64,000 nucleotides of DNA from Bacteroidaceae bacterium (GTDB lineage: Bacteria; Bacteroidota; Bacteroidia; Bacteroidales; Bacteroidaceae), in contig JAFNXM010000005.1 of NCBI GenBank assembly GCA_017383485.1, positions 98,907 through 162,906 on the forward strand, in the 5' to 3' direction. Numbering within the stretch: the first letter of the stretch is position 1; every line of letters begins with the position of its first letter. Below are positions 2,073 through 59,135 of this stretch, piece by piece. The notes below the pieces were generated by a model. The model was not told where the DNA came from. It saw only the letters and a list, made by a program, of their open reading frames with translations, and did no database searches. A program made the translations under genes and the position numbers.

Positions 2073-2158
2073 AAAAAAAGGTTAGACCTTGTTGAAATTT
2101 CGCGACGCCTCGTTAAAATTTTGCGCCGCCTCGTTCAAACAAGGTCTAACCTTTTTTT
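2073..2158 (+). repeat. Dispersed element copy A (2 units, 21-bp perfect inverted repeat)
   Basis: A perfect 21-bp inverted repeat (2073-2093 against 2138-2158) containing GGTTAGACC/GGTCTAACC encloses a 44-nt loop made of two tandem 21-22-nt units (first AAATTTCGCGACGCCTCGT, second AAATTTTGCGCCGCCTCGT). Arms end in A and T runs, so the structure could terminate transcription in both directions. It sits 44 bp beyond the stop of the GH20 gene. Confidence 0.9.
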
Positions 2159-2202
2159 ATGAGAGTAAATGATGGTGTATCCTACACCAGAGAGTAAGCC
2201 GT

Positions 2203-5200
2203 TTATTTCACATGCTTTTCGCCACGATCGTTGATATATACGCCGTGAGCGGGAGTGGTGATTTGGCGGCCGCCGAGGTCGTAGAGCTTGGTGTCGCCTG
2301 CCTGGCCATTAGTCAGGACTTGGTCGAGGCCTGTCACTACCTCTTCGGTCTTTTCAAAGGTCCATGTGCTGGCGCCCCAGAATGGTTTCATCAGGATGTA
2401 GCCCCACACGTCGGCATTGACGTACCATGAATTTCCGCCCTTGCCGTCGATGATGCAGATACCAGTCTTGCCGTCCAGGGTACGCTCTTCGAGGGTCCAG
2501 TCGTAGGGCTTACCCAAACGTACCATTTGGTCGGTAGCATCGCTCGAGATATATGCTGCGGTTTGTGTGGCCTTGTTGATCAGGACGACTGTCGCGTCGT
2601 TGTTTTTCACTACTTGCCACAGCTGTGTATCGTCGTTGTTTTTGGTCTTAGGCTCTACCTGGTTGGACGAGGTGTTGGCTGTAGCATAGTATTGGCTGAA
2701 CCATACGTTGTGGATGCGGTAGTAGTGGCCCGGATCGAAGCTATCTGCTACGCCTGTGCGCTCCATGCCGAGGAATTGGTTGTACTTTTCGACATATTCC
2801 TTGTAGGTCTTTTCGCTCACGCCACCCTTTTCAACCAGTGCCTTGGCAGGTGTGATGATGTCGTTCTTCAGGAAGTCCAAAGCAGACTCAGAGGGTTGTC
2901 CCATTTCGCCAGGTTTAGCGGTGGTGAGGAGGAGTTCGCATTTGTCCACGAGTCCCTTCAACCATGCGGTGAAGTCTTGCACTTCGACGATGCGCCATGT
3001 GCCGGGATAGCATAGTGCTGCGACGTCCTTGGCATGTACTTTGCCCGAGAGTTCGCCGTGCATACGCTTCACGTTGCCTGTCACATTTTTGTTGTAGCCA
3101 GCAACGGCAGAGATAGTCACTACGCCAGGGATATAAGTATAGTCGCCAGTAGCAACAGTAGCCTTGTCCACGCGGATAGGTGTGGCATTTTGTTCAACCA
3201 AAGTCACGGCGCTGTTGATGCTTGGCATTTGCAGAGCGAGGCCGTTGCATACGTTGCGCAGAGTGTATCCGCCGTTGGCCGCTTCGAAGGTCCAGAGCTC
3301 TTCGGGTTCTACTTGAGGTGTGTAGTGGAAACGTACGTTGGTGCCGTCGGCATAGACTGTCGAGCCAGCATATTGTTGCTTGTAGTAAGTCGCTGCTGAT
3401 ACGATTTGGTAAGTCTTGCCTGCTTGTGGCTGAACGATCTCGGCCGACTTGAACTGGCTGATAGCGCTGGACAGAGTACTTGCTGCACTGGCATCGCCTT
3501 CGGCTTTGTTCAGGGCTTCCTGCAATGCATCGTACATTTCTGCTGAAGGATAACCTACGCCGCCGCGTACGCTCTCGGTCAACAGTGTGCGCGCTTCGTC
3601 GAGGTCGGCTTCCAAAGCGGTCTTCTTGTCGGGCAAGATGTAGTGGGTAGCGTAGACATAACCCAGGGCGTCGAGGATCTCGTCGTGAGATTGCAGACGC
3701 GCATAGAAGTCGTCCCAATTTTTCTTGCTGGCTGGTAACCATCCTGTCTCAGACAATGCCAAAAGACGGGGCAAGAGTTGGTATTCCAATTCGTAGGCAT
3801 CGTTGGTAGTCTCAGTCCACATATTACCTTGAACGCCGAGGCAATAGTCTTCCTTGCCGCCAAGTGCGCCGAGTGGATTGATGTTGTACACTTCCTCGAT
3901 AGTATTATAGAAGCCGTCGCCCCATCCACCGTAATAAGGCTCGTCGATCTTGTGCTCAGAGAGGGGCACTTGCATAAAGTCGAGATAAAGTTGGTGATAA
4001 GGCACGATGATGCTCTTCAGTCCGAAGCTGGCAGCCTTAGCACTCAGGTCAAGGCTATTCCATGCCATGACGGCGGGCTTCACAGTATTCTTGCTGCTCC
4101 AGTGTGCCAGCAATTCGTCCCAAACGACGATGTCCTTGCCATGCTTCTCCTTGAGGTAAGTACCAAGCAACTCTACGAGCCAAGATTGCAACTCGTGTAC
4201 GCCAGCCAGGCCTTCCTCCTGCACACGACGCAAGCAGTCGGCATTGTTTGCCCATTGCTCGGTAGGACATTCATCACCACCGAGGTGAATATATTGGTGA
4301 GGGAAGATTTTTGCTACATTGTCCAACACACACTTCAGGAAGTCGATGACCTCGTCCTTACCGATGTTGAGCACGTCGTGAGAGATACCGCCGTCGATGC
4401 GTACGCTATATTGCTTGTTGGGGTCGCAACTGAATTCGGGGTAAGATGTCACTGCTGCAACCATATGGCCGGGCAGGTCGATCTCAGGCATAATTTCGAT
4501 ATGGCGTTCTGCAGCATAAGCTACGATTTCCTTCAGGTCTTCTTGCGAGTACCACATGCCGCGGCCATACTCAGTATCGTCGTAGAAAGCAGCACCGTCG
4601 CCAGGATTGCTGAACGAACCGCTACGGATTGCGCCGACTTCTGTCAATTTGGGGTATTCGGGGATTTCGATACGCCAGCCTTGGTCGTCGGTCAAGTGCC
4701 AGTGGAAACGGTTCATCTTATAGAATGCCATGATGTCAAGGATGCGTTTCACTTCCTCCTTGTCAAAATAGTGGCGGGCAATATCCAACATATAGCCGCG
4801 GTGACCCAGTGCGGGCTGGTCGGCGATATTGACGTAGGGCACGGTCCAGCGTGTGTCGGCTGTGCCTTGTGAGAAGTATTCGCGGGGGAGGAGTTGCTTC
4901 AAGGTCTGCATGGCGTAGAAGAAGCCAGCATCTGTCGCAGCGGTGATGCCGATGCCTTGCTCGTCGACTACGAGAGTGTAGGCCTCAGCGCCGAGAGATT
5001 TGTCTTCGCTCAAATGAATCACGCCCGCAGTGCGGTTAGCAGTAGTAGCGCTTACAGCCAAAGTGCGGCCCGAAGCCTTTTGCCATTGCGTAGCAAAGCC
5101 TTCGACGTGCTTGCGAACGTTTTCGCTGGTATAAGTGATAGTGGTGAGCGAAGTGAAATCCTTTTGTCCGTCCTTGGTTACGGTCAAGTTGGCGGGATAA

Positions 5201-5742
5201 GGCACCAATGAGATGCTGCCCAGAGCACCAAATTCTGCTTCGCTTTGGAATTTCACAGGGTCGTTCTGGTCGCCCTTGTCCCAAAAGCCTACGCCACGAT
5301 TTTCAGCAGGTCCGCCCCACAGGTTCATTGATACTGCAGAGTTGCCTACGGGTTGGATTTCGTAGTAGCCGGAATAAGTGGAATTGGTGGTCTTCACGAT
5401 TTTGAATCGCGTAGTTCCTGAAGCCGCGCTGCTGGCTTTTACCATCGTGTTCTTGGCAGAATTGGCAGCACAAAGGCGCAGACCCAATTTGTTGGTGAAG
5501 GTGTAACCGTCGGCGTCGTTGCCTTCGATTCTCCACAACTGTCCGTCGGCAGCCGTAGCGGCGCTGGTGCTGATTTGCGCATTGTTGGTCGTAGCGGTAA
5601 AGGCATTGCCGCCATTCATGAAGCGAATCATGTAATAGACCACATTGTCGCTCGTACTAACTGTGGGAAAAGTTTGCGCCCACGCTGTGAAAAATGAAAA
5701 CAGCGAGACGAGCAGTGAAAATGCTAAGATACGGTGTTTCAT
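2203..5742 (-). CDS. Secreted GH20 beta-N-acetylhexosaminidase with accessory domains
   Basis: 1179 aa. The signal peptide is residues 1-22. Residues ~30-165 form a beta-trefoil-like domain (QLWRIEGNDADGY). A GH20 N-terminal domain follows (~175-300, PYPANLTV) and then the GH20 barrel (~310-680), with HWHLTDDQGWR and the catalytic Asp-Glu pair at D490-E491 in HLGGDECPTEQW. Further trefoil-like and helical segments fill ~700-1130, and the protein ends in a 'YDLGGRQI...HGVYINDRGEKHVK' tail resembling a type IX sorting signal. GH20 enzymes release terminal GlcNAc/GalNAc from glycans by substrate-assisted catalysis, which fits mucin or N-glycan trimming outside the cell. It starts 53 bp after the nucleotidyltransferase/aminotransferase gene and may share its transcript, although the functional link is unclear. 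Confidence 0.93.
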   Translation of the reverse strand: MKHRILAFSLLVSLFSFFTAWAQTFPTVSTSDNVVYYMIRFMNGGNAFTATTNNAQISTSAATAADGQLWRIEGNDADGYTFTNKLGLRLCAANSAKNTMVKASSAASGTTRFKIVKTTNSTYSGYYEIQPVGNSAVSMNLWGGPAENRGVGFWDKGDQNDPVKFQSEAEFGALGSISLVPYPANLTVTKDGQKDFTSLTTITYTSENVRKHVEGFATQWQKASGRTLAVSATTANRTAGVIHLSEDKSLGAEAYTLVVDEQGIGITAATDAGFFYAMQTLKQLLPREYFSQGTADTRWTVPYVNIADQPALGHRGYMLDIARHYFDKEEVKRILDIMAFYKMNRFHWHLTDDQGWRIEIPEYPKLTEVGAIRSGSFSNPGDGAAFYDDTEYGRGMWYSQEDLKEIVAYAAERHIEIMPEIDLPGHMVAAVTSYPEFSCDPNKQYSVRIDGGISHDVLNIGKDEVIDFLKCVLDNVAKIFPHQYIHLGGDECPTEQWANNADCLRRVQEEGLAGVHELQSWLVELLGTYLKEKHGKDIVVWDELLAHWSSKNTVKPAVMAWNSLDLSAKAASFGLKSIIVPYHQLYLDFMQVPLSEHKIDEPYYGGWGDGFYNTIEEVYNINPLGALGGKEDYCLGVQGNMWTETTNDAYELEYQLLPRLLALSETGWLPASKKNWDDFYARLQSHDEILDALGYVYATHYILPDKKTALEADLDEARTLLTESVRGGVGYPSAEMYDALQEALNKAEGDASAASTLSSAISQFKSAEIVQPQAGKTYQIVSAATYYKQQYAGSTVYADGTNVRFHYTPQVEPEELWTFEAANGGYTLRNVCNGLALQMPSINSAVTLVEQNATPIRVDKATVATGDYTYIPGVVTISAVAGYNKNVTGNVKRMHGELSGKVHAKDVAALCYPGTWRIVEVQDFTAWLKGLVDKCELLLTTAKPGEMGQPSESALDFLKNDIITPAKALVEKGGVSEKTYKEYVEKYNQFLGMERTGVADSFDPGHYYRIHNVWFSQYYATANTSSNQVEPKTKNNDDTQLWQVVKNNDATVVLINKATQTAAYISSDATDQMVRLGKPYDWTLEERTLDGKTGICIIDGKGGNSWYVNADVWGYILMKPFWGASTWTFEKTEEVVTGLDQVLTNGQAGDTKLYDLGGRQITTPAHGVYINDRGEKHVK

Positions 5743-5795
5743 AATATAAAGATTAGGTTAATGATTTTAGGTGTATGTTGTCGTAGCAGTATTAT

Positions 5796-7616
5796 TTATC
5801 CCTTGGTGATACGTCGCAGCGCTTCAACCAGGCGGCTATTGTCTTGACGGTTGCGGATAGCGATGCGGATGTACTGCCTGCCGCAGAAAGCCTTCTTGGT
5901 AGAGCAGTCCTTGATGAGGAGGTTTTCCTCGTTGAGCAGGTGTAGGGTCAAGTCGGCCGAATTCATTGGCGCGAGGACTTCGCACAGGAAATAGTTGGCC
6001 TGTGAGGGGATGACGCGCAGGAAGGGGATGGTGCTGAGTTCGTCGAAGAAATGACGGCGCTCGGCTTGGAATTTCTCGCAGGCCAGGCGGTAGTCCACTT
6101 CGTACTTGGAGAAAATCTGCATGTAGAATTCGGCAAACGAGTTGATGTTCCATATTGCTACGTCGCGCTTGATCTTTGCGATGAGTGCCTTGTCTGCTGA
6201 CGCCAGGATGCCGAGGCGTAGGCCGGGCACGCCGAAGCTTTTCGAAATACTCTTCATCACGAGCATGTGGGGATAGGCTTCGAGCATCGCATTATTGAGC
6301 AAAGTGTTGCCTTCGTAACCCTCGCTGAAATCTACAAACGACTCGTCGACAATCAGGCGTATATTGCGCTCGCCTGTCCATTGTGCCAGGCGCAGCAGGT
6401 CTGCGTGAGGGATAAAATTGCCCGAGGGATTGTCTGGGTTGACTACGAGCAGGGTGTTGATGGCCTTGTCTGCGAAATACGCCATCAAGTCGTCGGCTGT
6501 ATAGGTGAAGTCTGCATTCTGCGGCACGAAGGTTTCTACCTGTTCGGGGCGACAGCGGTTGGGATATTCCTCGAATGTGGGACAGGTCACGCCGATGCGT
6601 CCCTGTTCGCCCTCCATCAGGCTCTTGATCAGTTCGGCTGCGCCATTGCCGGGTACGATGTATTCGCGATTCACGCCGAAGCATTTGCCCGCCAACAGAG
6701 AATTGACGTACATACCCGAGGGGTATTCGGTCAGCAGCGTATTAAAGTTGGCGCGCATCTCGTCCATCATTCTGCCCGAGGGGTAGTAGGGATTGACTAA
6801 GTAGCAAAAATCCAACATGCCGGGGAAGCGCCAATAGCCGCCGTAGCGTGCCATGTATTTCTGCTTACGCTCTGCACCTTCGGCAAAGAGGGCTTCGGCG
6901 ATATCCAGGTCTTGCTGGTCGTCGATCTCATACCATTTTTCGGTGGTGATGGGCAGTGCTTTCAGTTCGCTCTTGTCGAGGAAAGTGATCACGCGTAGCA
7001 CCTGTTCGTAGTACTCGTTGTTGCCCAAAGCCTTGCTGTAGGCTTCGAGGAAGGGCACATATTTTTGCTGAGAGAACTCGCGCGAAAATTTATAGATATT
7101 GACCGTCTTGTGATAGAAGTCCACCTCGCTATACTTGAAGGCCTTTTTGGGCACGAAGTTTACGATATTATTGTCGTCGTCTATGCGCACCATCGTGCCA
7201 TCCATCCAAGTTTGATATTTGGCTACGAGCGCCAGATTGGGCAGAGGATCATTGAGGATCAGGTCCAGCATGCTATCGTCGAAGATAAGGTCGCTTTCGA
7301 CGAGCAGAGTGTCATCTTCTTGCAACTGTTCCTTTGCCAGTGCCAGCGAATAGATATTATTCGTCTTGTCGTACACCGGATTTTCGATGTATTCGATCTT
7401 CAGTCGGTCGTCAAATCTATTGCCAATGTATCGGCGCAGTTTTTCGCCTTCGTAACCCACGACGATGACGACACGGCGCAGATTGTGGCGCGAGAGTTGG
7501 TCGAGCATGCGGTCGATCAGTGGCGTGCCGTTCACACGTACCATACATTTGGTGTTGTCTTTGGTCAGGTCGCCGAGGCGTTTGCCCATACCTGCGGCAA
7601 GGATGATGGCTTGCAT
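5796..7616 (-). CDS. LicC-like nucleotidyltransferase fused to class I aminotransferase
   Basis: 606 aa, two enzymes in one chain. Residues 1-~235 are a sugar-phosphate/choline-phosphate type nucleotidyltransferase (MQAIILAAGMGKRLGDLT, with KCMVRVNG and VESDLIF). Residues ~255-606 are a PLP-dependent fold-type I aminotransferase of the HisC/CobD group: GNGAAELIKSL, NPDNPSGNF, DESFVDFS and the probable Schiff-base lysine in SKSFGVPGLRLG. LicC-type enzymes make CDP-activated head groups; related fusions are known in phosphonate and phosphocholine pathways. I infer that it makes and activates an amino-containing head group (aminoethylphosphonate, ethanolamine or a similar compound) for transfer to a surface glycan. 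The downstream LicD domain of the adjacent 7676-9205 gene is the obvious partner. The substrate cannot be read from the sequence. Confidence 0.85.
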   Translation of the reverse strand: MQAIILAAGMGKRLGDLTKDNTKCMVRVNGTPLIDRMLDQLSRHNLRRVVIVVGYEGEKLRRYIGNRFDDRLKIEYIENPVYDKTNNIYSLALAKEQLQEDDTLLVESDLIFDDSMLDLILNDPLPNLALVAKYQTWMDGTMVRIDDDNNIVNFVPKKAFKYSEVDFYHKTVNIYKFSREFSQQKYVPFLEAYSKALGNNEYYEQVLRVITFLDKSELKALPITTEKWYEIDDQQDLDIAEALFAEGAERKQKYMARYGGYWRFPGMLDFCYLVNPYYPSGRMMDEMRANFNTLLTEYPSGMYVNSLLAGKCFGVNREYIVPGNGAAELIKSLMEGEQGRIGVTCPTFEEYPNRCRPEQVETFVPQNADFTYTADDLMAYFADKAINTLLVVNPDNPSGNFIPHADLLRLAQWTGERNIRLIVDESFVDFSEGYEGNTLLNNAMLEAYPHMLVMKSISKSFGVPGLRLGILASADKALIAKIKRDVAIWNINSFAEFYMQIFSKYEVDYRLACEKFQAERRHFFDELSTIPFLRVIPSQANYFLCEVLAPMNSADLTLHLLNEENLLIKDCSTKKAFCGRQYIRIAIRNRQDNSRLVEALRRITKG

Positions 7617-7675
7617 ATCTTGAGGTTTTGTTTGATGTATATATTAATATGGTGTAGCCCGAAGGCATGTGGTCG

Positions 7676-9205: not shown

Positions 9206-9414
9206 ATTTTATAGGGTTTTATTTCGTGATAAAAAGTCAAAGTGTGATGGCGATGCCATGCTTTCGTTTTGCTTGACCGCCCTTGCTGTTTTTAGTTTCA
9301 CGCCTTGGTTTTTCAATTCCAAGCCATGGATTTTTATGCTCAAAGCGTGTAATAAAAATTTCGCGACGTCTCGTTGAAAAAAAGTCTAACCTTTTTAAAA
9401 AAGGTCTAAGCTTT
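9206..9414. other. Intergenic region between folK and the IspD-LicD gene
   Basis: About 209 bp. It holds a short CTTGG/CCAAG inverted pair (about 9303-9323) and dispersed element copy B at its right end. I see no clear TAnnTTTG box for the IspD-LicD gene. Confidence 0.4.
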
Positions 9415-9416
9415 TT
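9354..9416 (+). repeat. Dispersed element copy B (1 unit)
   Basis: One unit with a single change (AAATTTCGCGACGTCTCGT), followed by two A/T-tract modules around GTCTAACC and GGTCTAAGC. It abuts and overlaps the folK stop codon at 9415-9417, so it forms the 3' end of the folK operon transcript. Confidence 0.8.
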
Positions 9417-9912
9417 AAAATTCCTCGGCGACTTTTTTCAATCCCTCCAAATCTATTTTTTCGAGCAACTCTTCCACCGTCTCTTTGTCGGGATACAGTC
9501 GTAATTTGGGAGCGACATCGCACAAGGGGCAAAGCACAAATGCACGCTCGCTGGTACGTGGGTGGGGCAGGGTCAGACGTGGTTCGTCCATCACTACACC
9601 CTCCATCCATAGCAGGTCGATGTCTATCGTGCGGTCGGCATATTGTCCGTCGACGCTCTTGTGCCGGCGGCCCAGTTCGCGCTCGATTTCCTGCGTCACG
9701 TCGAGGATTTTCTCTGGCGTCAGGTCTGTGCGACACGCGACGGCGGCATTCAGAAACAAATGCTTGGACTCAAATCCCACAGGCGCCGTTTCGTAGAGCG
9801 CAGACCTGGCTTCGATGCGGCCTACCCGTTCATCAATCATCTCGATTGCACGACGCAGGTTCTCTTTGCGTTCGCCAGTATTTGCACCCAGTGCCAGATA
9901 GAGCATCTTCAT
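9415..9912 (-). CDS. folK: 2-amino-4-hydroxy-6-hydroxymethyldihydropteridine pyrophosphokinase
   Basis: 165 aa, normal HPPK length. It transfers pyrophosphate from ATP to 6-hydroxymethyl-dihydropterin in cytoplasmic folate synthesis. Family marks are LALGANTGER at the start, ETAPVGF, the signature run DGQYADRTIDIDLLW with the Mg2+-binding aspartates, and LPHPR. It is the last gene of the minus-strand run ftsX–DUF3098–uppP–truB–queA–folK and starts 21 bp after the queA stop. The second Met (residue 3) is an alternative start. Confidence 0.95.
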   Translation of the reverse strand: MKMLYLALGANTGERKENLRRAIEMIDERVGRIEARSALYETAPVGFESKHLFLNAAVACRTDLTPEKILDVTQEIERELGRRHKSVDGQYADRTIDIDLLWMEGVVMDEPRLTLPHPRTSERAFVLCPLCDVAPKLRLYPDKETVEELLEKIDLEGLKKVAEEF

Positions 9913-9933
9913 CCTATGCCGTTTCTTCGAGGA

Positions 9934-10986: not shown

Positions 10987-11110
10987 ATCGTATATTTTTT
11001 TCTGATTGTCGGGTATAATATATATAATAAGGTGTGGGTGTGAGCAGGTCTTGGCTCGTGTGTAAGGCACAAAGTGTAGACTGCAACATACTACCCCCTC
11101 TGCGCATTGG

Positions 11111-11118
11111 CAAAGATA
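11111..11118 (-). promoter_or_regulatory. -7 box of a probable queA promoter
   Basis: TATCTTTG on the minus strand matches TAnnTTTG in the 141-bp truB-queA gap. I see no matching -33 TTTG at the expected distance. Confidence 0.35.
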
Positions 11119-11127
11119 AAATGTGCA

Positions 11128-11847: not shown

Positions 11848-11879
11848 CGTGAATCTATTTTTGTACGAGGATAGGGGCT

Positions 11880-12725: not shown

Positions 12726-12738
12726 ATTCCGCTAAGTT

Positions 12739-13002: not shown

Positions 13003-13035
13003 GTCAAATATGAATTGTGATAGGTTTGTATTCTG

Positions 13036-13908: not shown

Positions 13909-13938
13909 AATTATGAGGTTCTTTTTATGATTTCTACG

Positions 13939-13979
13939 GTACGAAGTGGATACAATCCACCTAAATTCGTACAAAGTTA
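13939..13979 (-). promoter_or_regulatory. ftsX promoter -7 box with a palindrome at the transcript start
   Basis: TAACTTTG (13979-13972) matches the -7 consensus. Immediately downstream lies a nested palindrome: GTACGAA (13939-13945) with TTCGTAC (13966-13972), and GTGGAT (13946-13951) with ATCCAC (13955-13960) around a 3-nt loop. As DNA it could be an operator; as RNA it would form a hairpin at the 5' end of the message. Confidence 0.55.
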
Positions 13980-14138: not shown

Positions 14139-14267
14139 AAAAATTTTGCGACGCCTCGTTGAAATTTCGCGACGCCTCGTTGAAATTTCGCGACGGCTCG
14201 TGAAAATTTTGCGACGGCTCGTGAAAAAAAGGTCTAATGTTTTTTCAACGAGGTCTAAGCTTTTTTT
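14139..14267 (+). repeat. Dispersed element copy C (4 units, divergent promoter region)
   Basis: Four tandem 21-bp units (two ending GCCTCGT, two ending GGCTCGT), then A/T-tract modules around GGTCTAATG and GGTCTAAGC. Preceded by GTTTTAGGGC, as in copy E. It sits between the divergent ftsX and CoA-transferase genes, where no transcript ends. It accounts for most of the 610-bp gap 13909-14518; no gene is visible there. Confidence 0.9.
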
Positions 14268-14438
14268 GACGGGGTTAAATCATGGGATTTTTAGGCGTAT
14301 CGTGTGGTGATTTTTTCGCCCTTTCGCAATTTGTGAAAGTGATGCTCTGTCGCCCCGATCTATTCCCTTTTTTTAGACAAAAAACAGGGTGGCTTCGTTG
14401 ATTTGTTCGATTTTGTAGGCGAAACGGCTTAAAAAACG

Positions 14439-19508: not shown

Positions 19509-19533
19509 TGTCTGAAAAACAATCCAAGACTTC

Positions 19534-19642
19534 GTTGAAATTCCGCGACGCCTCGTTGAAATTTCGCGACGGCTCGTAAAAATTTCGCGACGCCTCGTTA
19601 AAAAAAGGTCTAATGTTTTTTGAAAAAGGTTAGACTTTTTTT
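19534..19642 (+). repeat. Dispersed element copy D (3 units)
   Basis: Three tandem units spaced by 21 bp (the first CCGCGACGCCTCGT, the second with GGCTCGT), then modules GGTCTAATG and GGTTAGAC between A and T runs. It lies 25 bp after the lipoprotein stop and ends 22 bp before the pdxB start. Confidence 0.88.
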
Positions 19643-19664
19643 CAACCACCCCTTTTCCCCGATT

Positions 19665-20732: not shown

Positions 20733-20801
20733 TAGGCGAAGAAAACCTCTTCGCCATAAACCACAAAAAGCGCCGCGAGGAAATTTCGCGACGCTTTTTT
20801 T
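20733..20801. terminator. Convergent terminators, the second a degenerate dispersed element (copy K)
   Basis: A GGCGAAGA/CTCTTCGCC-type hairpin (about 20737-20755) is followed by GCGCCGCG against CGCGACGC (20770-20794, one mismatch) flanked by A5 and T7. The loop AGGAAATTT and right arm CGCGACGC match the unit of the dispersed family. It lies between the convergent pdxB and sialidase genes and can act both ways. Confidence 0.7.
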
Positions 20802-30400: not shown

Positions 30401-30443
30401 TTTAGTATAAATCAACCAAAGATTTTATTCCTCAAGAGGGGCT

Positions 30444-30531
30444 GAAAACTTCGCGACGCCTCGTTGAAAACTTCGCGACGCCTCGTGAAAAAAAGGTCTA
30501 ATGTTTTTTGAAAAAGGTCTAACCTTTTTTT
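30444..30531 (+). repeat. Dispersed element copy F (2 units)
   Basis: Two 22-bp units (AAAACTTCGCGACGCCTCGT) then modules GGTCTAATG and GGTCTAACC between A and T runs. It lies between the convergent sialidase and aminopeptidase genes. Confidence 0.9.
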
Positions 30532-35717: not shown

Positions 35718-35766
35718 TCGAACTTTCTCAGACATAAAAAATCCTCGGCTTTGAGGACAAAAAATT

Positions 35767-35846
35767 ACCTTAGACCTTTTTTAAATTTCGCGACGCCTCG
35801 TTAAAATTTCGCGACGCCTCGTGAAAAAAAGGTCTAAGGTTTTTTT
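35767..35846 (+). repeat. Dispersed element copy G (2 units, perfect arms)
   Basis: ACCTTAGACCTTTTTT (35767-35782) pairs perfectly with AAAAAAGGTCTAAGGT (35825-35840), enclosing two units. Arms differ from copy A yet remain complementary. It lies 50 bp after the beta-barrel gene; the rest of the 306-bp gap holds only the promoter at 35947-35975. Confidence 0.92.
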
Positions 35847-44016: not shown

Positions 44017-44093
44017 AAATGGCCTAAAAGCAAGGACAAAATCCCTTCGAATCAAAGCCTGAGAGATAAGGCTTAAATTGTAAAAATAAAAAA

Positions 44094-44171
44094 CCTACTC
44101 CTTTTTTAAATTTCGCGACGCCTCGTGAAAAAAAGGAGTAGGCTTTTTTGAAAAAGGTCTAACCTTTTTTT
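44094..44171 (+). repeat. Dispersed element copy H (1 unit, compensated arms)
   Basis: CCTACTCCTTTTTT (44094-44107) pairs with AAAAAAGGAGTAGG (44129-44142) around one unit. Here the usual GGTCTAA has become GGAGTAGG on one arm and CCTACTCC on the other, so pairing is kept by double changes. A second module with GGTCTAACC follows. The remaining part of the 438-bp uvrA-transporter gap holds the promoter and leader listed separately. Confidence 0.92.
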
Positions 44172-48315: not shown

Positions 48316-48396
48316 TCATTTGTCTCATTCCTCAAGGGTGCTAAAAAAATCAACCTAATATATATCCAATAGAAATAATAATAAAATAAATACGAT

Positions 48397-49815: not shown

Positions 49816-49835
49816 AAACCTTTTTCCTCGAAATA

Positions 49836-52541: not shown

Positions 52542-52573
52542 ACCCGCGCTGATAGCGTGAAATGATATATAAG

Positions 52574-52611
52574 AAGTGGTGCAGTTGCTTGGGCAATTGC
52601 GCCACTTTTTT
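52574..52611 (+). terminator. Terminator after the YfhO-like gene
   Basis: AAGTGGTGCAGTTGC (52574-52588) pairs with GCAATTGCGCCACTT (52593-52607), one mismatch, followed by a T run. Confidence 0.8.
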
Positions 52612-52671
52612 CATAAATAGGCGGTGGTGAAAGGGGGCTATTGCACCACCTGTGAGCCACCCTCGTTTTAG

Positions 52672-52788
52672 GACTCGAAAAAAAGTAAGACCTTTTTTGA
52701 ATTTCGCGACGCCTCGTTAAAATTTCGCGACGCCTCGTTAAAAAAAGGTTAAGGCTTTTTTGAAAAAGGTCTAACCTTTTTTCGAGTC
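52672..52788 (+). repeat. Dispersed element copy I (2 units, 12-bp outer arms)
   Basis: Outer arms GACTCGAAAAAA (52672-52683) and TTTTTTCGAGTC (52777-52788) are perfectly complementary; inside lie two 21-bp units and modules GGTTAAGGC and GGTCTAACC. GTTTTAGG precedes it as in copies C and E. In the 465-bp gap 52542-53006 the rest is AT-rich with the promoter at 52959. Confidence 0.92.
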
Positions 52789-52958
52789 ACCAGCATCGCG
52801 TGTTTTCGTCAAATGATCTGTGCAAAAAAAGTACTCATGGGGCGAAAAGGGCAAAAAAAGTAGGTCGTTTTTGCTAATCTTCTAATTTGTACATAATTAT
52901 TAACAGACGAAAGGCGTATGAATGTCGATTTTTTTTCGCCAATTTGAAGATTTTTTCG

Positions 52959-52966
52959 TAACTTTG
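52959..52966 (+). promoter_or_regulatory. -7 box for the PCMD lipoprotein gene
   Basis: TAACTTTG matches TAnnTTTG and lies 41 nt upstream of the ATG at 53007. The nearest upstream TTTG (52943-52946) is only 12 bp away, too close for a standard -33 element. Confidence 0.45.
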
Positions 52967-53006
52967 TCCCGATTTTTTGCACAAATTCAACAAAAGTGTA
53001 TCATAA

Positions 53007-54143
53007 ATGAAGCATTTTTTACCCCTTGCGTTCTTGGGTGCAGCACTGACTTTTTCTTCATGCATCCAGGACGAACCACTCAATGCTGAGTGCGATATCA
53101 CAGGCATCGACTCCTTGTGGCTCAGCAATCACAAAGCGATGATCATTGGCGACCCTATTGTGACCAATACCACCGTATCGGTGACATTGAAGAAGGGCTC
53201 TGATCGCACACAATTAGACCCCAAATTTTATTTGACTCCCGGCGCACAGATTTTTATTACTGGCGAGGGCACTCCTGCCAATGGTGTTGTGCGCGACTTC
53301 ACTGCTCCACAACTCTATACCGTACGTTCTGAGGACGGCAATTGGTCCAAGGACTACACCGTCTCCTTCAATTATCCACGTCCTATATCAGTGTGCAGTT
53401 TTGAGCACTATGCGCTCGACGCCAGTGGTAAGTTCTATCAATGGTACGAAGTGGACGCCAGCGACGAGCAGAATCCGCGTCGCGACTATTGGGCTACAGG
53501 GAATGCAGGCTTTGCTATGTCGGGAATGGCTCAGACTCCCGAGGGCTATCCCACTACGCCAAATCCACTCGGTGTGCGAGGCAACTGCGTATGTCTGCGC
53601 ACCAGCGATACAGGTGCTTTCGGCGCCAGCACGCGTATGCCTATTGCTGCAGGAAATATATTCATCGGCGAATTCAAAACTTCGCAGGCGATGCTCTTCC
53701 CACGCAAAGCTACACGCATGGGCTTGCAATTGGTCGGTGGCGAACCCGTGATGCTGATAGGCTATTATAAATATACACCAGGCGAAGTGTTCTATGACAA
53801 AAACAAAGAAGTGGTCGAAGGACGCCGCGATAAGTGCGATGTCTATGCCGTATTGTACGAAGTAGATCCCGCTAAGTTCGTTCCGCTCAACGGCGACGAT
53901 GTCTTGACTAGTAATCGCATCGTGTCGGTAGCACGCTTCGAAAATCCTGAAGAGCCCAAAGAATGGACTAAGTTTGAACTCCCATTCGTCATGAAGGAAG
54001 GAAAAACTTTCGATCGCGAACGTATGGACAACGATGGTTATGCTATTACCGTCGTAGCTTCGTCCAGTCGCGACGGACAAGTATTCGAAGGCGCTATCGG
54101 TAGTGAACTTTTTATCGACGAATTGGAGATTGTTTGGAAGTAA
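53007..54143 (+). CDS. PCMD domain lipoprotein
   Basis: 378 aa. The lipobox FSSC follows a short signal (MKHFLPLAFLGAALTFSSC). Residues ~25-130 form an Ig-like DUF (AMIIGDPIVTNTTVSVTLKKG, shown from VSVTLKKG; YTVSFNYPRP), and ~135-378 the PCMD jelly-roll (NVCVCLRTSDTGAFG-like CVCLRTSDTGAFG, IGEFKT, WTKFELPF, LFIDELEIVWK). PCMD stands for putative carbohydrate metabolism domain, and surface glycan binding is suspected but not shown. It heads a group of four exported proteins. Confidence 0.85.
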   Translation: MKHFLPLAFLGAALTFSSCIQDEPLNAECDITGIDSLWLSNHKAMIIGDPIVTNTTVSVTLKKGSDRTQLDPKFYLTPGAQIFITGEGTPANGVVRDFTAPQLYTVRSEDGNWSKDYTVSFNYPRPISVCSFEHYALDASGKFYQWYEVDASDEQNPRRDYWATGNAGFAMSGMAQTPEGYPTTPNPLGVRGNCVCLRTSDTGAFGASTRMPIAAGNIFIGEFKTSQAMLFPRKATRMGLQLVGGEPVMLIGYYKYTPGEVFYDKNKEVVEGRRDKCDVYAVLYEVDPAKFVPLNGDDVLTSNRIVSVARFENPEEPKEWTKFELPFVMKEGKTFDRERMDNDGYAITVVASSSRDGQVFEGAIGSELFIDELEIVWK

Positions 54144-54250
54144 TATACTCGGCCGTCTAATGAATGATTATCTACAAAGATGATTAAGGGTACTTTGAAT
54201 TTCTCGTTCCTTATTCAAATCAAATCGTTCCTCGTTACAAAAAAATAATT

Positions 54251-55072
54251 ATGAAAAAGATATATACACTGATCATTTTGCTCGCTTCCTTTACCTCAGT
54301 CTTCGCACAGAGCGGAAGCCACACAGATGATACCGACGAAAACTTGCTGCGTGCTGCTGTGCGCGGCTGGCACGTTCGTGTAGGTGCAGGATTCAACCTC
54401 GGCGGCACATCGCCCCTGCCCCTGCCCGCAGAAATCCGCGCTATCGACGGATTTAATCCAGGATTGCACATCGCTCTCGAGGGCGCAATGCAAAAACAAT
54501 TTGGTGCCACACCATGGGGTATTCAGTTGGGCGTACGACTCGAATCAAAAGGGATGAGTACCGACGCTACAGTGAAAAACTACTACATGGAAGCCAAAGA
54601 AGCCGACGGCGGCGAGATCAAAGGCGCCTTCACCGGTCACGTCAAAACCAATGTGAACAACAGATATTTGACCTTCCCCGTACTGGGTGTATACAAAATC
54701 AACGAGCGCTGGAGCGTGTCGGCAGGACCCTACCTCTCGTGGATGTTCAACGGCTCATTCTCGGGCGAAGCCTACGGCAACGAAATCAAAAACGAATTGG
54801 GCGAAAGCATTGGTGTAGACGCCTACATCCGAGATCAGAATCCTACGGGCGAAAAGACTGAGGTGACCAGCGCGACCTATGACTTCTCGGGAAATCTCCG
54901 TAAGTTCCACTACGGTGTGCAAGTCGGCGGAGAATTTAAAGCCTACAAACACCTCTCGGCATTTGTCAATCTGCAATGGGGATTAAATGGTATTTTCCCT
55001 TCTGACTTCAGCAGTGTTACTTTCTCGCTCTATCCTGTCTACGGCACTTTGGGCTTTAACTATTTGTTCTAA
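54251..55072 (+). CDS. PorT-like outer-membrane beta-barrel protein
   Basis: 273 aa with signal peptide MKKIYTLIILLASFTSVFA. The mature chain consists of amphipathic strands typical of eight-to-ten-stranded barrels (WHVRVGAGFNLGG, WGIQLGVRLESKG, WSVSAGPYLSWMF, FHYGVQVGGEFKAY, GTLGFNYLF with terminal Phe). The terminal aromatic residue fits BAM-mediated insertion. It stands between the PCMD lipoprotein and the calycin-like protein, 107 bp after the former, probably in one locus. Confidence 0.83.
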   Translation: MKKIYTLIILLASFTSVFAQSGSHTDDTDENLLRAAVRGWHVRVGAGFNLGGTSPLPLPAEIRAIDGFNPGLHIALEGAMQKQFGATPWGIQLGVRLESKGMSTDATVKNYYMEAKEADGGEIKGAFTGHVKTNVNNRYLTFPVLGVYKINERWSVSAGPYLSWMFNGSFSGEAYGNEIKNELGESIGVDAYIRDQNPTGEKTEVTSATYDFSGNLRKFHYGVQVGGEFKAYKHLSAFVNLQWGLNGIFPSDFSSVTFSLYPVYGTLGFNYLF

Positions 55073-55152
55073 TATAATATAAATATAAGTCCACCTAACG
55101 GAAATAATAACTAACCAGAAAAAAATAAAACAACCAAAAACAATAAAAGCTT

Positions 55153-56223
55153 ATGAAAAAAATTCTACTCTCTCTTATTGCAGTAGCATTGTTTAGCGCT
55201 TCGGCTGTAGCACAAACCGTGACAGACGTTGCAGGCGACTATCAAGGAAAACTCTACATCAGCTTGGGCGAACCAATCAACGCAGAAACTGAATTTATCG
55301 ACGGCGAAAAGGTATCACTCGTTGCCAACGAAGACGGTACCGTTGACTTCAAGCTCAAAAACTTCGCTTTCGCAGATATGACTCTTGGCGATATCGAAGT
55401 AAATCACTTGCATTTGATATTCAAAGGCAACTTTGCTAAATTTAGCGACGTTGAGCCAGTAAACCTCGTATTCAACCAAGGCACAGATGCTGAAATTCAT
55501 GCAACAGCCCTCATCAACGAACAAGAAAGCTACATCCGTGGCGAACGTATCGTTGTGGATTTGCCCGTAATGTGGACTAACGTGCCAGGAATGGACGAGC
55601 CCATGCCAATCTACGTACTCTTCGACGGAAAGAAAGTAGCACAAGCTGCAGAAATCGGCGTGAAGAATATCGCAGGCGGTTACGAAGGTCAACTCTTCAT
55701 CGCTTTGGGTGAAGAAATCACTGACGAAACTGAAGCAATCGACGGACAAAAGGTAGAACTCTCTGCTGCTGGCGAAGATGCTGTGAACTTCAAGTTACCA
55801 AACTTCGCATTCGGCGATATGACTCTTGGCGATATTGAAATTACAAGCATCAAGGTAAACTTTAACGGTACAGCAACTTCATTTGAAGAAAGAGAACCCG
55901 TAAAACTCGTATTCAACGAAGGTACAGAACAGGAACTCCACGCAATAGCTCTGCTCGATGTCAACTACAGCAGCATCTGGGGCGAATCTCTCGACGTACT
56001 CTTGAATGTAATGTGGACCAATGTGCCAGGCGGCGGCGAAATTCCTATCAATGTGCGCTTCATCGGTGTGAAGACTATTACTGGCATCAACAACGTGACT
56101 ATTGCTCGTCCTGCAACTCAAGGCGTATATAGCATAGATGGTCGTTACGTAGGCAAGGAATTAGACCAAAACCTCATACGCGGTATCTATATCGTAGGTG
56201 GCCAAAAGGTACTGAAGAAATAA
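55153..56223 (+). CDS. Secreted protein with two calycin-like domains
   Basis: 356 aa, signal peptide MKKILLSLIAVALFSASAVA. Two homologous domains (~22-155 and ~168-300) share MTLGDIE, VKLVFN/VNLVFN, and VMWTNVPG; the repeat is internal duplication. Both look like the calycin/lipocalin-like fold common in Bacteroidetes exported proteins. A 50-residue C-terminal tail (GVYSIDGRYVGKEL...GIYIVGGQKVLKK) matches the tails of the glycosidases. Ligand unknown. Confidence 0.82.
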   Translation: MKKILLSLIAVALFSASAVAQTVTDVAGDYQGKLYISLGEPINAETEFIDGEKVSLVANEDGTVDFKLKNFAFADMTLGDIEVNHLHLIFKGNFAKFSDVEPVNLVFNQGTDAEIHATALINEQESYIRGERIVVDLPVMWTNVPGMDEPMPIYVLFDGKKVAQAAEIGVKNIAGGYEGQLFIALGEEITDETEAIDGQKVELSAAGEDAVNFKLPNFAFGDMTLGDIEITSIKVNFNGTATSFEEREPVKLVFNEGTEQELHAIALLDVNYSSIWGESLDVLLNVMWTNVPGGGEIPINVRFIGVKTITGINNVTIARPATQGVYSIDGRYVGKELDQNLIRGIYIVGGQKVLKK

Positions 56224-56229
56224 TAACGG

Positions 56230-56385
56230 AAAGCGAGTGTTATCCCTTCTATAAGGCAAAGCGGACCAGCACTTCTGCTTTGCGGATTAAGGAAAAAATG
56301 TCTCATATTATAGGAACTTTCTCATAGATCAAAGGATTTTTCTACAACAATAGACATCACAAGGGTTCACACTCGCTTTTTTTGT
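56230..56385 (+). ncRNA. Candidate structured RNA or long 3' UTR ending in a terminator
   Basis: AAAGCGAGTGT..CCCTT (56230-56248) pairs with AAGGG..CACACTCGCTTT (56361-56379) with two mismatches, and GCAAAGC (56256-56262) pairs with GCTTTGC (56277-56283) inside. A T run follows the closing arm, so the outer stem could be a terminator with a ~110-nt internal insert. It lies in the 187-bp gap before the next gene. Whether it is an independent RNA is not known. Confidence 0.4.
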
Positions 56386-56410
56386 TTTTCATCTCCAATA
56401 AAAAGAATTT

Positions 56411-58669
56411 ATGAAAAGATTATTCACATTTGCTCTAGCTTTGATGACCGCTTTCGGTCTTTCGGCGCAAGGTATCTACCAGTTTGCCGACCCAAGCTTT
56501 GAACAATACACAGGAAACGATACCGAGCCAGGAAATGGTTGGAATTCGTTCAATTCTGCCACTGGTGGTATGGCTGGTATGGGTAAGGGTAGTTCGCCCA
56601 AACCCTCGAGTGTTTCGCCCGGTGCTAATGGTACAGGACGTGCAGTTAAGATTTATTCAAAAAGTATTTTAGGTAAGAAAGCTAATGGTAACTTGACTAC
56701 CGGTATGATTAATATGGGTAGCATGACGCCAGCGGATGCGAGCAACCACAACTACACTAAGCGCGACGATGCTACACATAGTTTGCGCTTTGCCGGACGT
56801 CCTGATGCTGTGACCTTCTATGCGAAATTCAAGAGCGGAGGTTCGCCCAACGGTCGTGGACAGTTTATCCTGCACGGCGACGTGGATTTCCGCGATCCTG
56901 AAGTGAGCGATCAAGCATCTTACCGCATCGGTAAAGCTTCAGCTTTGGTCAACGCATCAAGCGATTGGGTGAAGTATGAAGCCAAGTTCTCGTATGATCA
57001 AGCTCAAGGCAATGTGCAATACCTCCTCGCTACGTTTACCACTAATCCCACTCCCGGTGGTAGTGCAGGCGACGAATTGATCGTAGACGAAATCTACTTC
57101 ATCTACTATCACGCTTTGACTGCACTTTCTTACAATGGCAAGTCGTTGAATCCTTCGGAAAGTGGTGGTAGCTTTGACCTCTCAGCAGAAGAGTATAGCG
57201 AATCAAAACTGTCATATACGGTCAAGGGCGCAGGGGCTACTGTCGAAAAGTCTTTCAATAAGTCTACTGGCGTTTTGACCTTGACTGTGAAGGGTAGCTA
57301 CTACGCTTCAAATGCAAACAGCAAGACCGTATATACATTGCAGTTTGCTAAGTCGGAAAATCCCGACCCAGATCCTAATCCAGAACCTGATCCCGATCCC
57401 AACCCCGGTACTGAAGTGAAACCTTTGGGCGCTCCCGTATCAACATTGACTGAGCTGAAGAATAGCGTGACTTATGCGCTCTACAATCCAGCTTATACTG
57501 CGTATGCGAAGTATGCTCCTGCTTATTCGACTTCTTATGTTTGGACCGCTGGTATGAAGGGTGATGATACTTCTCATGCTTTGGCTTCGCAGACCTATGC
57601 GGAACCTTTCGACCCCGCGGCGAAGAGTGATGCGTGGATGGTAGTGACATTCAACGGCAAGTATTATATATATAATATGGAGGCGAAGAAGTTCCTCACT
57701 ACGCCCGATCCTAATAGCACCACTGCTGGTCGCGAGATCACCTTCTCATCTACTCCTGTCGGTATGACGGCTGTCGAATTGTCCAACTCATCTTTTGCCC
57801 TCACTGCAGGAGGTGGCGACTACAACTATATGTGTGCTGCACCTCAGCTGACCAATTCTCCACTCAGCATTTGGGATACGCAAGATGCTGGTTCGGCTTG
57901 GCAATTTATGGTCAACCCCAATGTTGAAGCAGACCTCAGCGTGTTGGCGCTGATCGACGCTTCGATCAAACCAGACGTAGATGTGAACGTAGAACCACAG
58001 GGCGGCATCATCACAAACCTTGATGAAATTCGCGACGACAAGACTTATACGATCTACAATCCTACGTTCAAGGCCTACGCTATCTATGACGAAGTCTATG
58101 CTAGTTCGGTGTCTTACGTCTGGGCAGCAGAAATGATTGGCGATGCAGGACATCCTCTCTACACCCAAAACTATTCGAAGCCTCTCGATACGACTGCAGA
58201 GGGTTCAAGCTGGATGATTGTGCCATTCGATGGTAAATTTTATTTCTACAACGTTGGTGCAGATAAATTCCTCAGTGTGCCCGAATACAATGGCGAGACT
58301 AAGCCTGTGACACTCACCGAAAGCGTGACTTCACTCTTCATCGAGGATATGGGAGCTGGTAACTTCGCCATCACACAGCACGGCGGCACTAAGGAATACC
58401 TCTGCGCGGCGCCACAAAACTACATCGCGCCACTTTCTATTTGGGAAAAGACTGACGCAGGTGCTGCATGGCAATTGCGCGAGAACCCCAACGTGGCAGC
58501 GCAAAGCGACATATTGGAACGCATCTACCCCACAGCTATACAGGGCGTACAAACCGAAGCTGTGCGCAAGGGCGTCTACACCATCAGCGGCGTGTATTTG
58601 GGTGCCAAGGCAACCAACTTGCCCGCAGGTGTATATATCATTGATGGCAAGAAAGTGCTGGTGAAATGA
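56411..58669 (+). CDS. Secreted protein: PCMD-like domain plus two trefoil-like modules
   Basis: 752 aa, signal peptide MKRLFTFALALMTAFGLSA. Residues ~20-225 resemble a PCMD jelly roll (YQFADPSFEQYTGND, AVTFYAKFKSGGSP, LIVDEIYFIYY). A strand domain (~230-315) and a rigid linker DPDPNPEPDPDPNPG (~320-335) follow. Two related modules (~345-515 and ~530-705) each start with an L-x-E-I/L-x-D/N-V/K-TY-x-I/L-YNP pattern and end SIW..TDAG-AWQ. The C-terminus GVYTISGVYLG...GVYIIDGKKVLVK is the common tail. No catalytic site is seen; a surface adhesin or glycan-binding role is inferred. Confidence 0.8.
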   Translation: MKRLFTFALALMTAFGLSAQGIYQFADPSFEQYTGNDTEPGNGWNSFNSATGGMAGMGKGSSPKPSSVSPGANGTGRAVKIYSKSILGKKANGNLTTGMINMGSMTPADASNHNYTKRDDATHSLRFAGRPDAVTFYAKFKSGGSPNGRGQFILHGDVDFRDPEVSDQASYRIGKASALVNASSDWVKYEAKFSYDQAQGNVQYLLATFTTNPTPGGSAGDELIVDEIYFIYYHALTALSYNGKSLNPSESGGSFDLSAEEYSESKLSYTVKGAGATVEKSFNKSTGVLTLTVKGSYYASNANSKTVYTLQFAKSENPDPDPNPEPDPDPNPGTEVKPLGAPVSTLTELKNSVTYALYNPAYTAYAKYAPAYSTSYVWTAGMKGDDTSHALASQTYAEPFDPAAKSDAWMVVTFNGKYYIYNMEAKKFLTTPDPNSTTAGREITFSSTPVGMTAVELSNSSFALTAGGGDYNYMCAAPQLTNSPLSIWDTQDAGSAWQFMVNPNVEADLSVLALIDASIKPDVDVNVEPQGGIITNLDEIRDDKTYTIYNPTFKAYAIYDEVYASSVSYVWAAEMIGDAGHPLYTQNYSKPLDTTAEGSSWMIVPFDGKFYFYNVGADKFLSVPEYNGETKPVTLTESVTSLFIEDMGAGNFAITQHGGTKEYLCAAPQNYIAPLSIWEKTDAGAAWQLRENPNVAAQSDILERIYPTAIQGVQTEAVRKGVYTISGVYLGAKATNLPAGVYIIDGKKVLVK

Positions 58670-58702
58670 TCTCGGTAGAATTATCACGGATAACTCTATA
58701 AA

Positions 58703-58732
58703 ATGGGCATCCCTCGGACGAGGGGTGCCCTT
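58703..58732 (+). terminator. Terminator after the PCMD-like gene
   Basis: GGGCATCCCTCG pairs with GAGGGGTGCCC around a GAC loop, then TTTCGTTT. Confidence 0.75.
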
Positions 58733-58780
58733 TCGTTTGGACTTTGTTTAGCACGAGAATTGTTTTGCAAAGGCACATTT

Positions 58781-59135
58781 TTTGTCAAAATTTTTCGCAT
58801 TTTCGAAGAGTGAGAATCGCTTAAAATCCACCGCCAGTATCTTTGGCTGCAAATACAGCACTCTCGCGAGGTCTAAATTCGCAGTTTTTTGTACAAAAAG
58901 TCAAAAAGCCTTAGGTTTTTTAGCGAAACCTGTGAAAAAGCAGGGCAAATTTCCAATTTTCTGTGCGTCGAAAAAGATGAAAAAGTCAAGGCCTCGTGAA
59001 AATTTCGCGACGCCTCGTGAAAAAAACATTAGACCTTTTTTCAACAAAGCCTTGGCTTTTTCCAAAAAGGTCCTGTCTCGCCGAAACAACAACTTCTATT
59101 TCATCAACAGCGTTTGTCAAAATTTTTCGCATTTT
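58781..59135. repeat. 23-bp direct repeat flanking copy J
   Basis: The same 23 bases (beginning TTTGTCAAAATTTTTCGC) occur at 58781-58803 and 59113-59135, 332 bp apart in the convergent gap 58670-59192. The space between contains copy J and otherwise non-coding AT-rich sequence. Confidence 0.7.
58980..59061 (+). repeat. Dispersed element copy J (1.5 units)
   Basis: Outer arms AAAAAGTCAAGGC (58980-58992) and GCCTTGGCTTTTT (59049-59061) pair with one mismatch. Inside are a partial unit (GCCTCGTGA), one full unit and ACATTAGACC. It lies between convergent genes. Confidence 0.85.

What the first reader, a model, noticed from the sequence alone, without database searches (positions are those of the whole stretch)
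2073..59061. Family of dispersed intergenic elements: 21-bp CG-rich unit plus A/T-tract hairpins
At least ten clear copies (A-J: 2073, 9354, 14139, 19534, 25802, 30444, 35767, 44094, 52672, 58980) and one degenerate copy (20765) occur, one every ~3-9 kb and only outside genes. Each has 1-4 tandem units with core AAATTTCGCGACGCCTCGT followed by one or two modules such as A6-GGTCTAACC-T6, which are themselves small palindromes. I know of no named Bacteroidales element with this layout. It could be a REP-like or MITE-like family, a nucleoid/condensin site, or a novel terminator class.
Basis: seen in the sequence. Interest (0 to 1): 0.85.

Follow-up and report, generated by a model that had tools for sequence, protein, structure and literature searches.

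The report
Evenly spaced 21-bp palindromic repeat arrays
A rumen bacterium carries, about every 7 thousand bases and between genes, small hairpin-forming arrays built from 21-base modules that, with rare exceptions, keep at least about 3.4 thousand bases away from each other.

Summary
The window has ten true copies; the eleventh (20765) is an ordinary terminator. The core occurs 235 times in the 1.68-Mb host assembly. The unit is 21 bp; the core is one of several interchangeable modules, and outer modules of a copy are often complementary. A sister genome (median 93% identity) has arrays at most mapped sites, but contents change in 21-bp steps, with one exact loop inversion and one locus with two compensatory changes. 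Two other species carry a related family of different sequence with the same 21-bp arm-core-arm plan; 11 of 11 tested sites are shared between them.

New finding: arrays avoid each other. Of 72 array-region pairs within 3 kb (intergenic regions of at least 200 bp), none is occupied; beyond 4 kb about half are. By site, 0 of 94 gaps are under 3.4 kb; random placement gives 19-30. The second lineage shows this only weakly.

They are not primarily terminators (21 of 51 divergent regions hold one), nor the repeats beside the resident Y1 transposase. Best reading: BOX/REPIN-like hairpin repeats that colonised under distance-dependent exclusion and now evolve in place. Enzyme and function are unknown.

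The parts
2073..2158 (+). Array A: arm module, 2 core units, complementary arm
   Evidence: RNA fold z -4.38
9356..9416 (+). Array B: 1 core unit plus 2 A/T modules; its end touches the stop of the gene called at 9415-9912 (-)
   Evidence: fold z -2.65; [quoted passage not shown]
14139..14268 (+). Array C: 4 core units plus 2 modules, between divergent genes
   Evidence: fold z -4.25
19520..19643 (+). Array D: left arm, 3 core units, 2 modules
   Evidence: fold z -3.46; array with 1 core in the sister genome
25802..25901 (-). Array E: 2 core units plus 2 modules inside an outer inverted repeat, between divergent genes
   Evidence: fold z -2.07
30438..30531 (+). Array F: 2 core units plus 2 modules, between convergent genes
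   Evidence: fold z -3.05
35765..35846 (+). Array G: arm, 2 core units, complementary arm
   Evidence: fold z -5.25
44088..44171 (+). Array H: arms with an unusual middle sequence, still complementary, around 1 core unit; one further module
   Evidence: fold z -7.41
52672..52788 (+). Array I: nested inverted repeats around 2 core units
   Evidence: fold z -3.93; [quoted passage not shown]
58979..59062 (+). Array J: arm, 1 core unit, module, complementary arm
   Evidence: fold z -3.71
58781..59136 (+). Long form (332 bp from end repeat to end repeat) that embeds array J, bounded by 24-bp direct repeats
20765..20800 (.). Not a copy: ordinary hairpin terminator between convergent gene ends that matches part of the core

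Best explanation
These are structured, non-coding interspersed repeats built from 21-bp modules (two helical turns). A complete copy is arm - core (1 to 4) - complementary arm, sometimes with more modules. Shown: modular 21-bp anatomy; intergenic placement; hairpin folding, and in part of the copies an arm complementarity specific to that copy; presence at shared sites while contents change in 21-bp steps, by loop inversion and by paired changes; related families of different sequence in two species pairs; mutual avoidance within about 3.4 kb in the host genome. Inferred: the repeats colonised each lineage as non-autonomous copies of an unidentified element, in a process that refuses sites near an existing copy (like transposition target immunity). 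They are now nearly immobile, and replication errors act in place: slippage adds or removes a 21-bp unit, and template switching within the palindrome copies one arm onto the other and flips the loop. A host role (topology, insulation) would be secondary.
For: Unit: 62 of 75 core neighbours exactly 21 apart, identity peak at lag 21. Copy-specific arm pairing: mean score 13.09 against 12.13 (sd 0.30) when arms are exchanged between copies, 10 of 5000 permutations as high. Changes within loci against the sister genome: two paired changes at L097:8834; exact inversion of a two-core loop at L127:11289; unit number differing at L094:4309, L108:2519 and L111:7598; one 21-bp module swapped at L105:18176. 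Site stability: G008 against G020, 11 of 11 tested sites have an array in both. Exclusion in G000: 0 of 72 array-region pairs within 3 kb occupied, 12 of 43 at 3-4 kb, 26 of 52 at 4-5 kb; by site 0 of 94 gaps under 3.4 kb against means of 18.6 to 29.8 by candidate set, lowest 10 to 16 in 3000 runs each. Not saturated: 29 vacant regions of at least 200 bp lie 3.4 kb or more from any array, which fits exclusion better than a need for regular spacing. Few carriers: the module pattern is abundant in 4 of 58 genomes of the genus, the A/T module and long form in G000 and G001.
Against: No transposase tied to the arrays was found; the Mu-transpos_C search was silent in the controls too, so it says nothing. 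No clean empty site or target duplication. Retention at 11 of 11 sites, with elements more alike than flanks in 11 of 11, could mean selection for a host function. Copy-specific pairing is carried by a minority: 14 of 108 copies have their own pairing in the top 5%. In the second lineage the spacing evidence is weak: the smallest of 16 gaps is 2483 bp with probability 0.004 or 0.045 by candidate set, and the overall gap CV (0.73) is no lower than the null means (0.83 or 0.74). In G000 one raw gap is 1910 bp, to a core-less array, and the sister genome has one of 1553 bp. The two spacing controls had too few members to inform.
Confidence: 0.5

Rival explanations
1. Chromosome-organising sites under selection: palindromes that extrude as cruciforms or bind a bridging or topological protein, kept a minimum distance apart because two close sites interfere or are redundant.
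For: Exclusion zone and over-dispersion in G000; nearly the same density in two lineages with different module sequences (113 arrays in 817,537 bases; 17 in 120,000); 11 of 11 tested sites kept and more alike than their flanks.
Against: 29 admissible sites are vacant. Orientation does not follow GC skew (53 of 104), and neighbours agree only slightly more than shuffled (54 of 90 against 45.9). The module pattern is not abundant in 54 of 58 genomes. Placement beside the same genes in G008 and G000 is not clearly shared: 6 gene sides both, 12 and 11 one only, 64 neither.
Confidence: 0.25
2. Bidirectional transcription terminators or insulators.
For: Hairpins with U-runs: fold z -2.07 to -7.41 in 10 of 10 window copies; convergent regions are most often occupied, 24 of 43. 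Only 15 of 107 arrays have another terminator-like hairpin close by, so at some gene ends the array could be the terminator.
Against: 21 of 51 divergent regions are occupied, where no gene ends, including copies C and E of the window. A terminator role gives no reason for a 3.4-kb exclusion zone.
Confidence: 0.1
3. Ordinary IS-derived MITE with terminal inverted repeats, moved by an IS transposase present in the cell.
For: The long form has defined ends and near-identical copies; one long-form copy, 95% like a G000 copy, lies on a G003 contig whose best long match to G000 is 66%.
Against: Arms of the short form differ between copies; the long form ends in direct, not inverted, repeats; no target duplication found; sites are mostly shared. 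The G003 copy lies at a contig end and may be an assembly chimera.
Confidence: 0.1
4. Same repeats, but the gap rule comes from selection against pairs that recombine: close copies delete or invert the genes between them and are lost.
For: Copies are alike, and the exact loop inversion shows exchange or template switching between inverted repeats at these sites.
Against: Such loss should fall off gradually with distance; the observed edge is sharp (0 of 72 pairs under 3 kb, 12 of 43 at 3-4 kb, 26 of 52 at 4-5 kb). In Pseudomonas fluorescens, REP next-neighbour distances above 200 bp did not depart from random (PMC3116915, section read).
Confidence: 0.2

Closest known systems
BOX elements of Streptococcus pneumoniae (PMC3049150; abstract and two Results sections read)
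   Same: Modular plan with end modules and a variable number of middle modules; 125 copies in one genome; over-represented between convergent genes; length varies at a site.
   Different: Modules are longer than 21 bp (recalled). The paper states TIRs and target duplications for BOX, and about half of insertions shared by all strains. The sections read describe no exclusion distance. No sequence relation was tested.
REPINs / REP-RAYT systems (PMC3116915; abstract and one section read)
   Same: Inverted unit pairs that form hairpins around a spacer; extragenic; many copies; differing between related genomes.
   Different: REPINs go with a RAYT; here the Y1 gene is flanked by other palindromes. 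REP neighbour distances above 200 bp fit a random model in the section read; here they do not.
BrickBuilt MITE of Porphyromonas gingivalis (PMC4596501; abstract, one section and part 1 of another read)
   Same: Bacteroidales; intergenic; tandem short units (23 bp) inside a repeat with inverted ends.
   Different: 19 copies, 1 to 22.8 tandem units, IS5-like 12-nt TIRs, leader and tail segments. Arms here are 21-bp modules that differ from copy to copy.
GTAG- and CGTC-tagged REPs (PMC3733652; passages read, abstract among them)
   Same: Short palindromes, often paired; CGTC type reported in Bacteroidetes and without a dedicated transposase.
   Different: Units of 20-40 bp with a terminal tag; none of the commonest modules here has GTAG, and CGTC occurs inside the reverse strand of the core, not as a tag. 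No systematic tag search was made.

Membership tests
REP / REPIN | Associated RAYT (Y1 transposase) flanked by the same repeats | tested here: not met
   The single Y1_Tnp gene found in G000 and the one in G008 are flanked by GCCCTGAAAGGGC-type palindromes, not by the 21-bp modules; the G020 gene was not read; none found in G001 (74% complete)
REP / REPIN | GTAG or CGTC tag at the foot of the palindrome | tested here: inconclusive
   No GTAG in the commonest modules; CGTC internal to the reverse-strand core; no systematic tag search
REP / REPIN | Inverted pair of units forming a hairpin around a spacer | tested here: met
   Arm-core-arm palindromes in part of the G000 copies and in G008/G020
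BOX-like modular repeat | End modules plus a variable number of tandem middle modules | tested here: met
   1 to 4 core units per array; number differs between orthologous copies
BOX element proper | Sequence homology to boxA/boxB/boxC | not tested
   No BOX sequence was compared
MITE (incl. BrickBuilt) | Conserved terminal inverted repeats shared by copies | tested here: not met
   Arms differ between copies; long-form ends are direct repeats
MITE (incl. BrickBuilt) | Target-site duplication at an empty/filled site pair | tested here: inconclusive
   Two present/absent loci between G000 and G001 differ over the whole intergenic region
Intrinsic terminator class | Located at gene ends and absent where no gene ends | tested here: not met
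   21 of 51 divergent regions of at least 100 bp occupied
Known RNA family | Rfam match in the window | tested here: not met
   0 matches at gathering score
Phage or plasmid element | Same sequence in phage, plasmid or viral collections | tested here: not met
   Copy I: no match in phages or plasmids; core and long-form end: 0 viral contigs with an exact match
Tn7/Mu-like transposon ends | Transposase with Mu-transpos_C domain in carrying genomes | tested here: inconclusive
   0 of 58 genomes, but the controls gave nothing either

The most novel reading that the evidence does not exclude
The arrays mark out the chromosome: a cellular or element-borne mechanism senses distance along DNA and keeps hairpin arrays at least about 3.4 kb apart (perhaps about 2.4 kb in a second lineage with other module sequences), so that a chromosome ruler of co-evolving palindromes exists in these bacteria, for example as anchors of topological domains.
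Probability: 0.22. Interest if true: 0.92.

Novelty: new variant of a known kind. Interest (0 to 1): 0.72.

Why it matters
In the one account of neighbour distances that I read (REPs of Pseudomonas fluorescens), such repeats were random beyond 200 bp. A family with a sharp minimum distance, the same 21-bp plan in two lineages with different sequence, and arms that change together within a locus makes two questions testable: whether such repeats spread under target immunity, and whether any serve chromosome organisation. Orthologous pairs in sister genomes also give natural records of template switching at palindromes.

Tried and rejected
Rejected: terminator class as main role (divergent placement); RAYT/REP membership; known phage or plasmid element; Rfam family; replication-polar sites (orientation against GC skew 53 of 104). 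The 20765 copy rejected as a terminator. A shared downstream gene family at long-form copies: the best ORFs at 21 loci looked unrelated by eye; no comparison was run.

Inconclusive or against: empty sites; Mu-transpos_C (controls silent); spacing controls with RAYT-type REP clusters (3 clusters) and perfect-stem terminators (10), both too few. A first, strict count put such a terminator within 300 bp of 1 of 72 arrays; a laxer one gave 15 of 107 against 1 in shuffled flanks. Shared placement between G008 and G000. Inverted-repeat density in other congeners, biased because several stretches were chosen around Y1 genes. first showed copy 25 as absent in G001; one search showed this to be a projection error. 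One search stopped with a script error: two of three G003 matches to the long-form end were read and looked unrelated, the third G003 match and the G025 one were not read.

Rows dropped before counts: of 115 core clusters, six were dropped as chance matches at 4 mismatches, leaving 109; from then on the 20781 terminator was dropped too, leaving 108. Two 4-mismatch clusters in array context were kept. In one search, 102 of 109 had a gene on both sides. By site 108 of 113 arrays count: five lie outside a called intergenic region, one of them a partner of the 1910-bp gap. Of 432 candidate modules 309 were used for the module profile.

Bias to tell: G001 loci were fetched by the core, and the G001 contigs were picked because they had core, module or long-form matches; presence in G001 is therefore somewhat favoured.
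Full report
What was checked. The core 19-mer matches 21 times in the window at up to 3 mismatches, against 0.02 expected. These fall in ten arrays plus one match at 20781, which reads as an ordinary terminator hairpin and is nearly unchanged in a sister genome. The host assembly (G000, 1.68 Mb in 39 contigs, 63.6% complete) has 235 core matches at up to 2 mismatches, with none for the reversed pattern.

Anatomy. With the window I examined 817,537 bases of G000, which hold 115 core clusters; 108 remain after dropping seven. They have 1 core unit in 53, 2 in 37, 3 in 12 and 4 in 6; same-strand neighbours start 21 bp apart in 62 of 75 cases and 42 bp in 11. The A/T modules share that 21-bp frame: seven A-rich bases, nine variable bases, five T-rich bases. 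So the core is one kind of module. Five arrays without a core were found with a module profile that gave no cluster at score 20 or more in 194,777 bases of congeners.

Palindromy. In many copies the first module is complementary to the last. Exchanging arms between copies lowers the mean pairing score from 13.09 to 12.13 (sd 0.30); 10 of 5000 permutations reach the observed value, and 14 of 108 copies rank in the top 5%. The effect is real but carried by part of the copies; copy H of the window has arms of unusual sequence that still pair. As RNA, 10 of 10 window copies fold better than the shuffle mean, z -2.07 to -7.41.

A longer form. Thirteen of 109 core arrays lie in a repeat bounded by direct repeats of about 24 bp. 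In G000 the listed end pairs are 331-334, 353 or 375 apart, that is about 332 plus none, one or two units; G001 also has 319 and 213. A second long form has four members.

Distribution. The core was found in 4 of 61 genomes: G000, G001 (99 matches), G003 (1) and G013 (1, inside a gene). In 58 genomes of the genus, the A/T module is abundant in G000 (77) and G001 (80), with 1 in G003, and the long form occurs in G000, G001 and once in G003. The G003 copy is 95% like a G000 copy, while the best long match of that contig to G000 is 66%; it lies at the contig end, so horizontal transfer and a chimeric contig both remain possible. A pattern with free positions then showed a related family in G008 (101 matches) and G020 (156), beside G000 (215) and G001 (86); the other 54 genomes have 0-3, like the controls. 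In G008/G020 a copy is typically arm-core-arm, 3 x 21 bp, and core orientation differs between copies.

Change within loci. G000 and G001 align at a median of 93% in blocks over 500 bases. Of 117 G000 arrays, 31 could be mapped to the G001 stretches; by a lenient pattern 27 have an array there. Of the other four, one (L112:10235) reads as an array by eye, one is a chance match in a gene, one is unclear and one (L129:14480) is a true absence. The other way, 27 of 66 mapped and 23 have an array; three of the rest are lone core-like matches, probably chance, and one is a true absence. The core itself is missing in G001 at 8 of 29 mapped loci; at one of these the long form is there without a core. 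Contents differ more than sites: 2 against 3 cores (L094:4309), 4 against 2 (L108:2519), 3 against 2 (L111:7598), one module replaced in frame (L105:18176), an exact inversion of the two-core loop between its arms (L127:11289), and two paired changes that keep the stem (L097:8834). Between G008 and G020 (long matches 80-88% identical), I tested 11 of the 17 G008 elements: 11 of 11 have modules at the orthologous site, and the element is more alike than its 100-bp flanks in 11 of 11. Because family members resemble one another, this may reflect homogenisation as well as selection.

Placement. By my own ORF caller (533 genes), 0 of 109 core stretches overlap a gene. Occupied intergenic regions of at least 100 bp: 57 of 212 co-directional, 24 of 43 convergent, 21 of 51 divergent. 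Divergent regions have no gene end, so termination cannot be the general role. A separate terminator-like hairpin lies close to 15 of 107 arrays, against 1 in shuffled flanks. In G008 a cruder caller put 3 of 17 arrays inside an ORF.

Spacing. With 108 core arrays there are 94 gaps, mean 7376 bp, CV 0.46, smallest 3461 bp; random placement gives CV 0.78-0.84. With core-less arrays added, 113 arrays give 99 gaps, one of them under 3.4 kb (1910 bp). By occupied site (108; five arrays outside a called intergenic region drop out, one of them a partner of that short gap), 0 of 94 gaps are under 3.4 kb; choosing sites at random gives 29.8, 24.9, 22.3 or 18.6 on average when candidate regions must be at least 100, 200, 250 or 300 bp, and never below 10 in 3000 runs each. 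Counted as pairs of an occupied site and another region of at least 200 bp (a region may be in more than one pair), 0 of 72 are occupied within 3 kb, 12 of 43 at 3-4 kb, 26 of 52 at 4-5 kb. The sister genome shows a similar edge: its smallest gaps are 1185 bp (to the ortholog of the rejected terminator), 1553 bp, then 3708 bp; as its sites are mostly orthologous it is no independent test. In G008 the smallest of 16 gaps is 2483 bp, probability 0.004 or 0.045 by candidate set, while the gap CV (0.73) is no lower than the null means (0.83 or 0.74), so the second lineage supports exclusion only weakly; a capped list for G020 has 2355 bp as its smallest gap. Vacant admissible sites exist in G000 (29 of at least 200 bp; null mean 45, lowest 27), so the pattern is exclusion rather than full regular packing. 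My two spacing controls had too few members to inform.

Mechanism. Shown: modular anatomy, hairpin folding, in-place change by unit number, loop inversion and paired change, shared sites, exclusion in G000. Inferred: slippage and template switching as the mutational causes; spread in trans by an unknown enzyme with a distance effect. The Y1 transposase is not that enzyme on present evidence: its gene is flanked by other palindromes in the two genomes read, and Y1 genes are found in 28 of 58 genomes, among them 3 of the 4 carriers. No match was found in phage, plasmid or viral collections.

Comparison. BOX elements (PMC3049150) share the end-middle(n)-end plan, and REPINs (PMC3116915) the inverted pair; in the REPIN paper next-neighbour distances above 200 bp fit the random model (section read), unlike here. 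BrickBuilt (PMC4596501) shares the order Bacteroidales and short tandem units but has IS5-like TIRs. Eight searches of the paper library listed no paper that, by title and start of abstract, describes this family; most subscription journals are not held there, so this is weak evidence of novelty.

Noticed in passing
L103:4087-4425 (G000) and L286:4498-4836 (G008): RAYT-like Y1 transposase genes embedded in arrays of GCCCTGAAAGGGC / CGGCCTGAAAGGCC palindromes: a separate REP-like system in this genus.
   Followed up: partly
L031 / G003:C48:19992-20349: Long-form copy about 95% like a G000 copy at the end of a contig whose best long match to G000 is 66%: lateral transfer or assembly chimera.
   Followed up: partly
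L285:946-1180, 11817, 12812 (G062): Another large palindromic family with AACGCTACCAC units and a GACGCGTCGCCCCCATTAG stem in a different congener.
   Followed up: no
L302:15590-16051 (G004): Dense array of about 9-bp steps around AATAACTTCGTTAACTTCG in both orientations.
   Followed up: no
L281:9776-10207 (G008): A stretch of about 430 bp around a G008 array with many partial matches in G020, perhaps parallel to the long form of G000.
   Followed up: no
window:40535-40647 against L235:14346-14408: Array present in G001 and absent in G000, but the whole intergenic stretch differs, so no insertion boundary can be read.
   Followed up: yes
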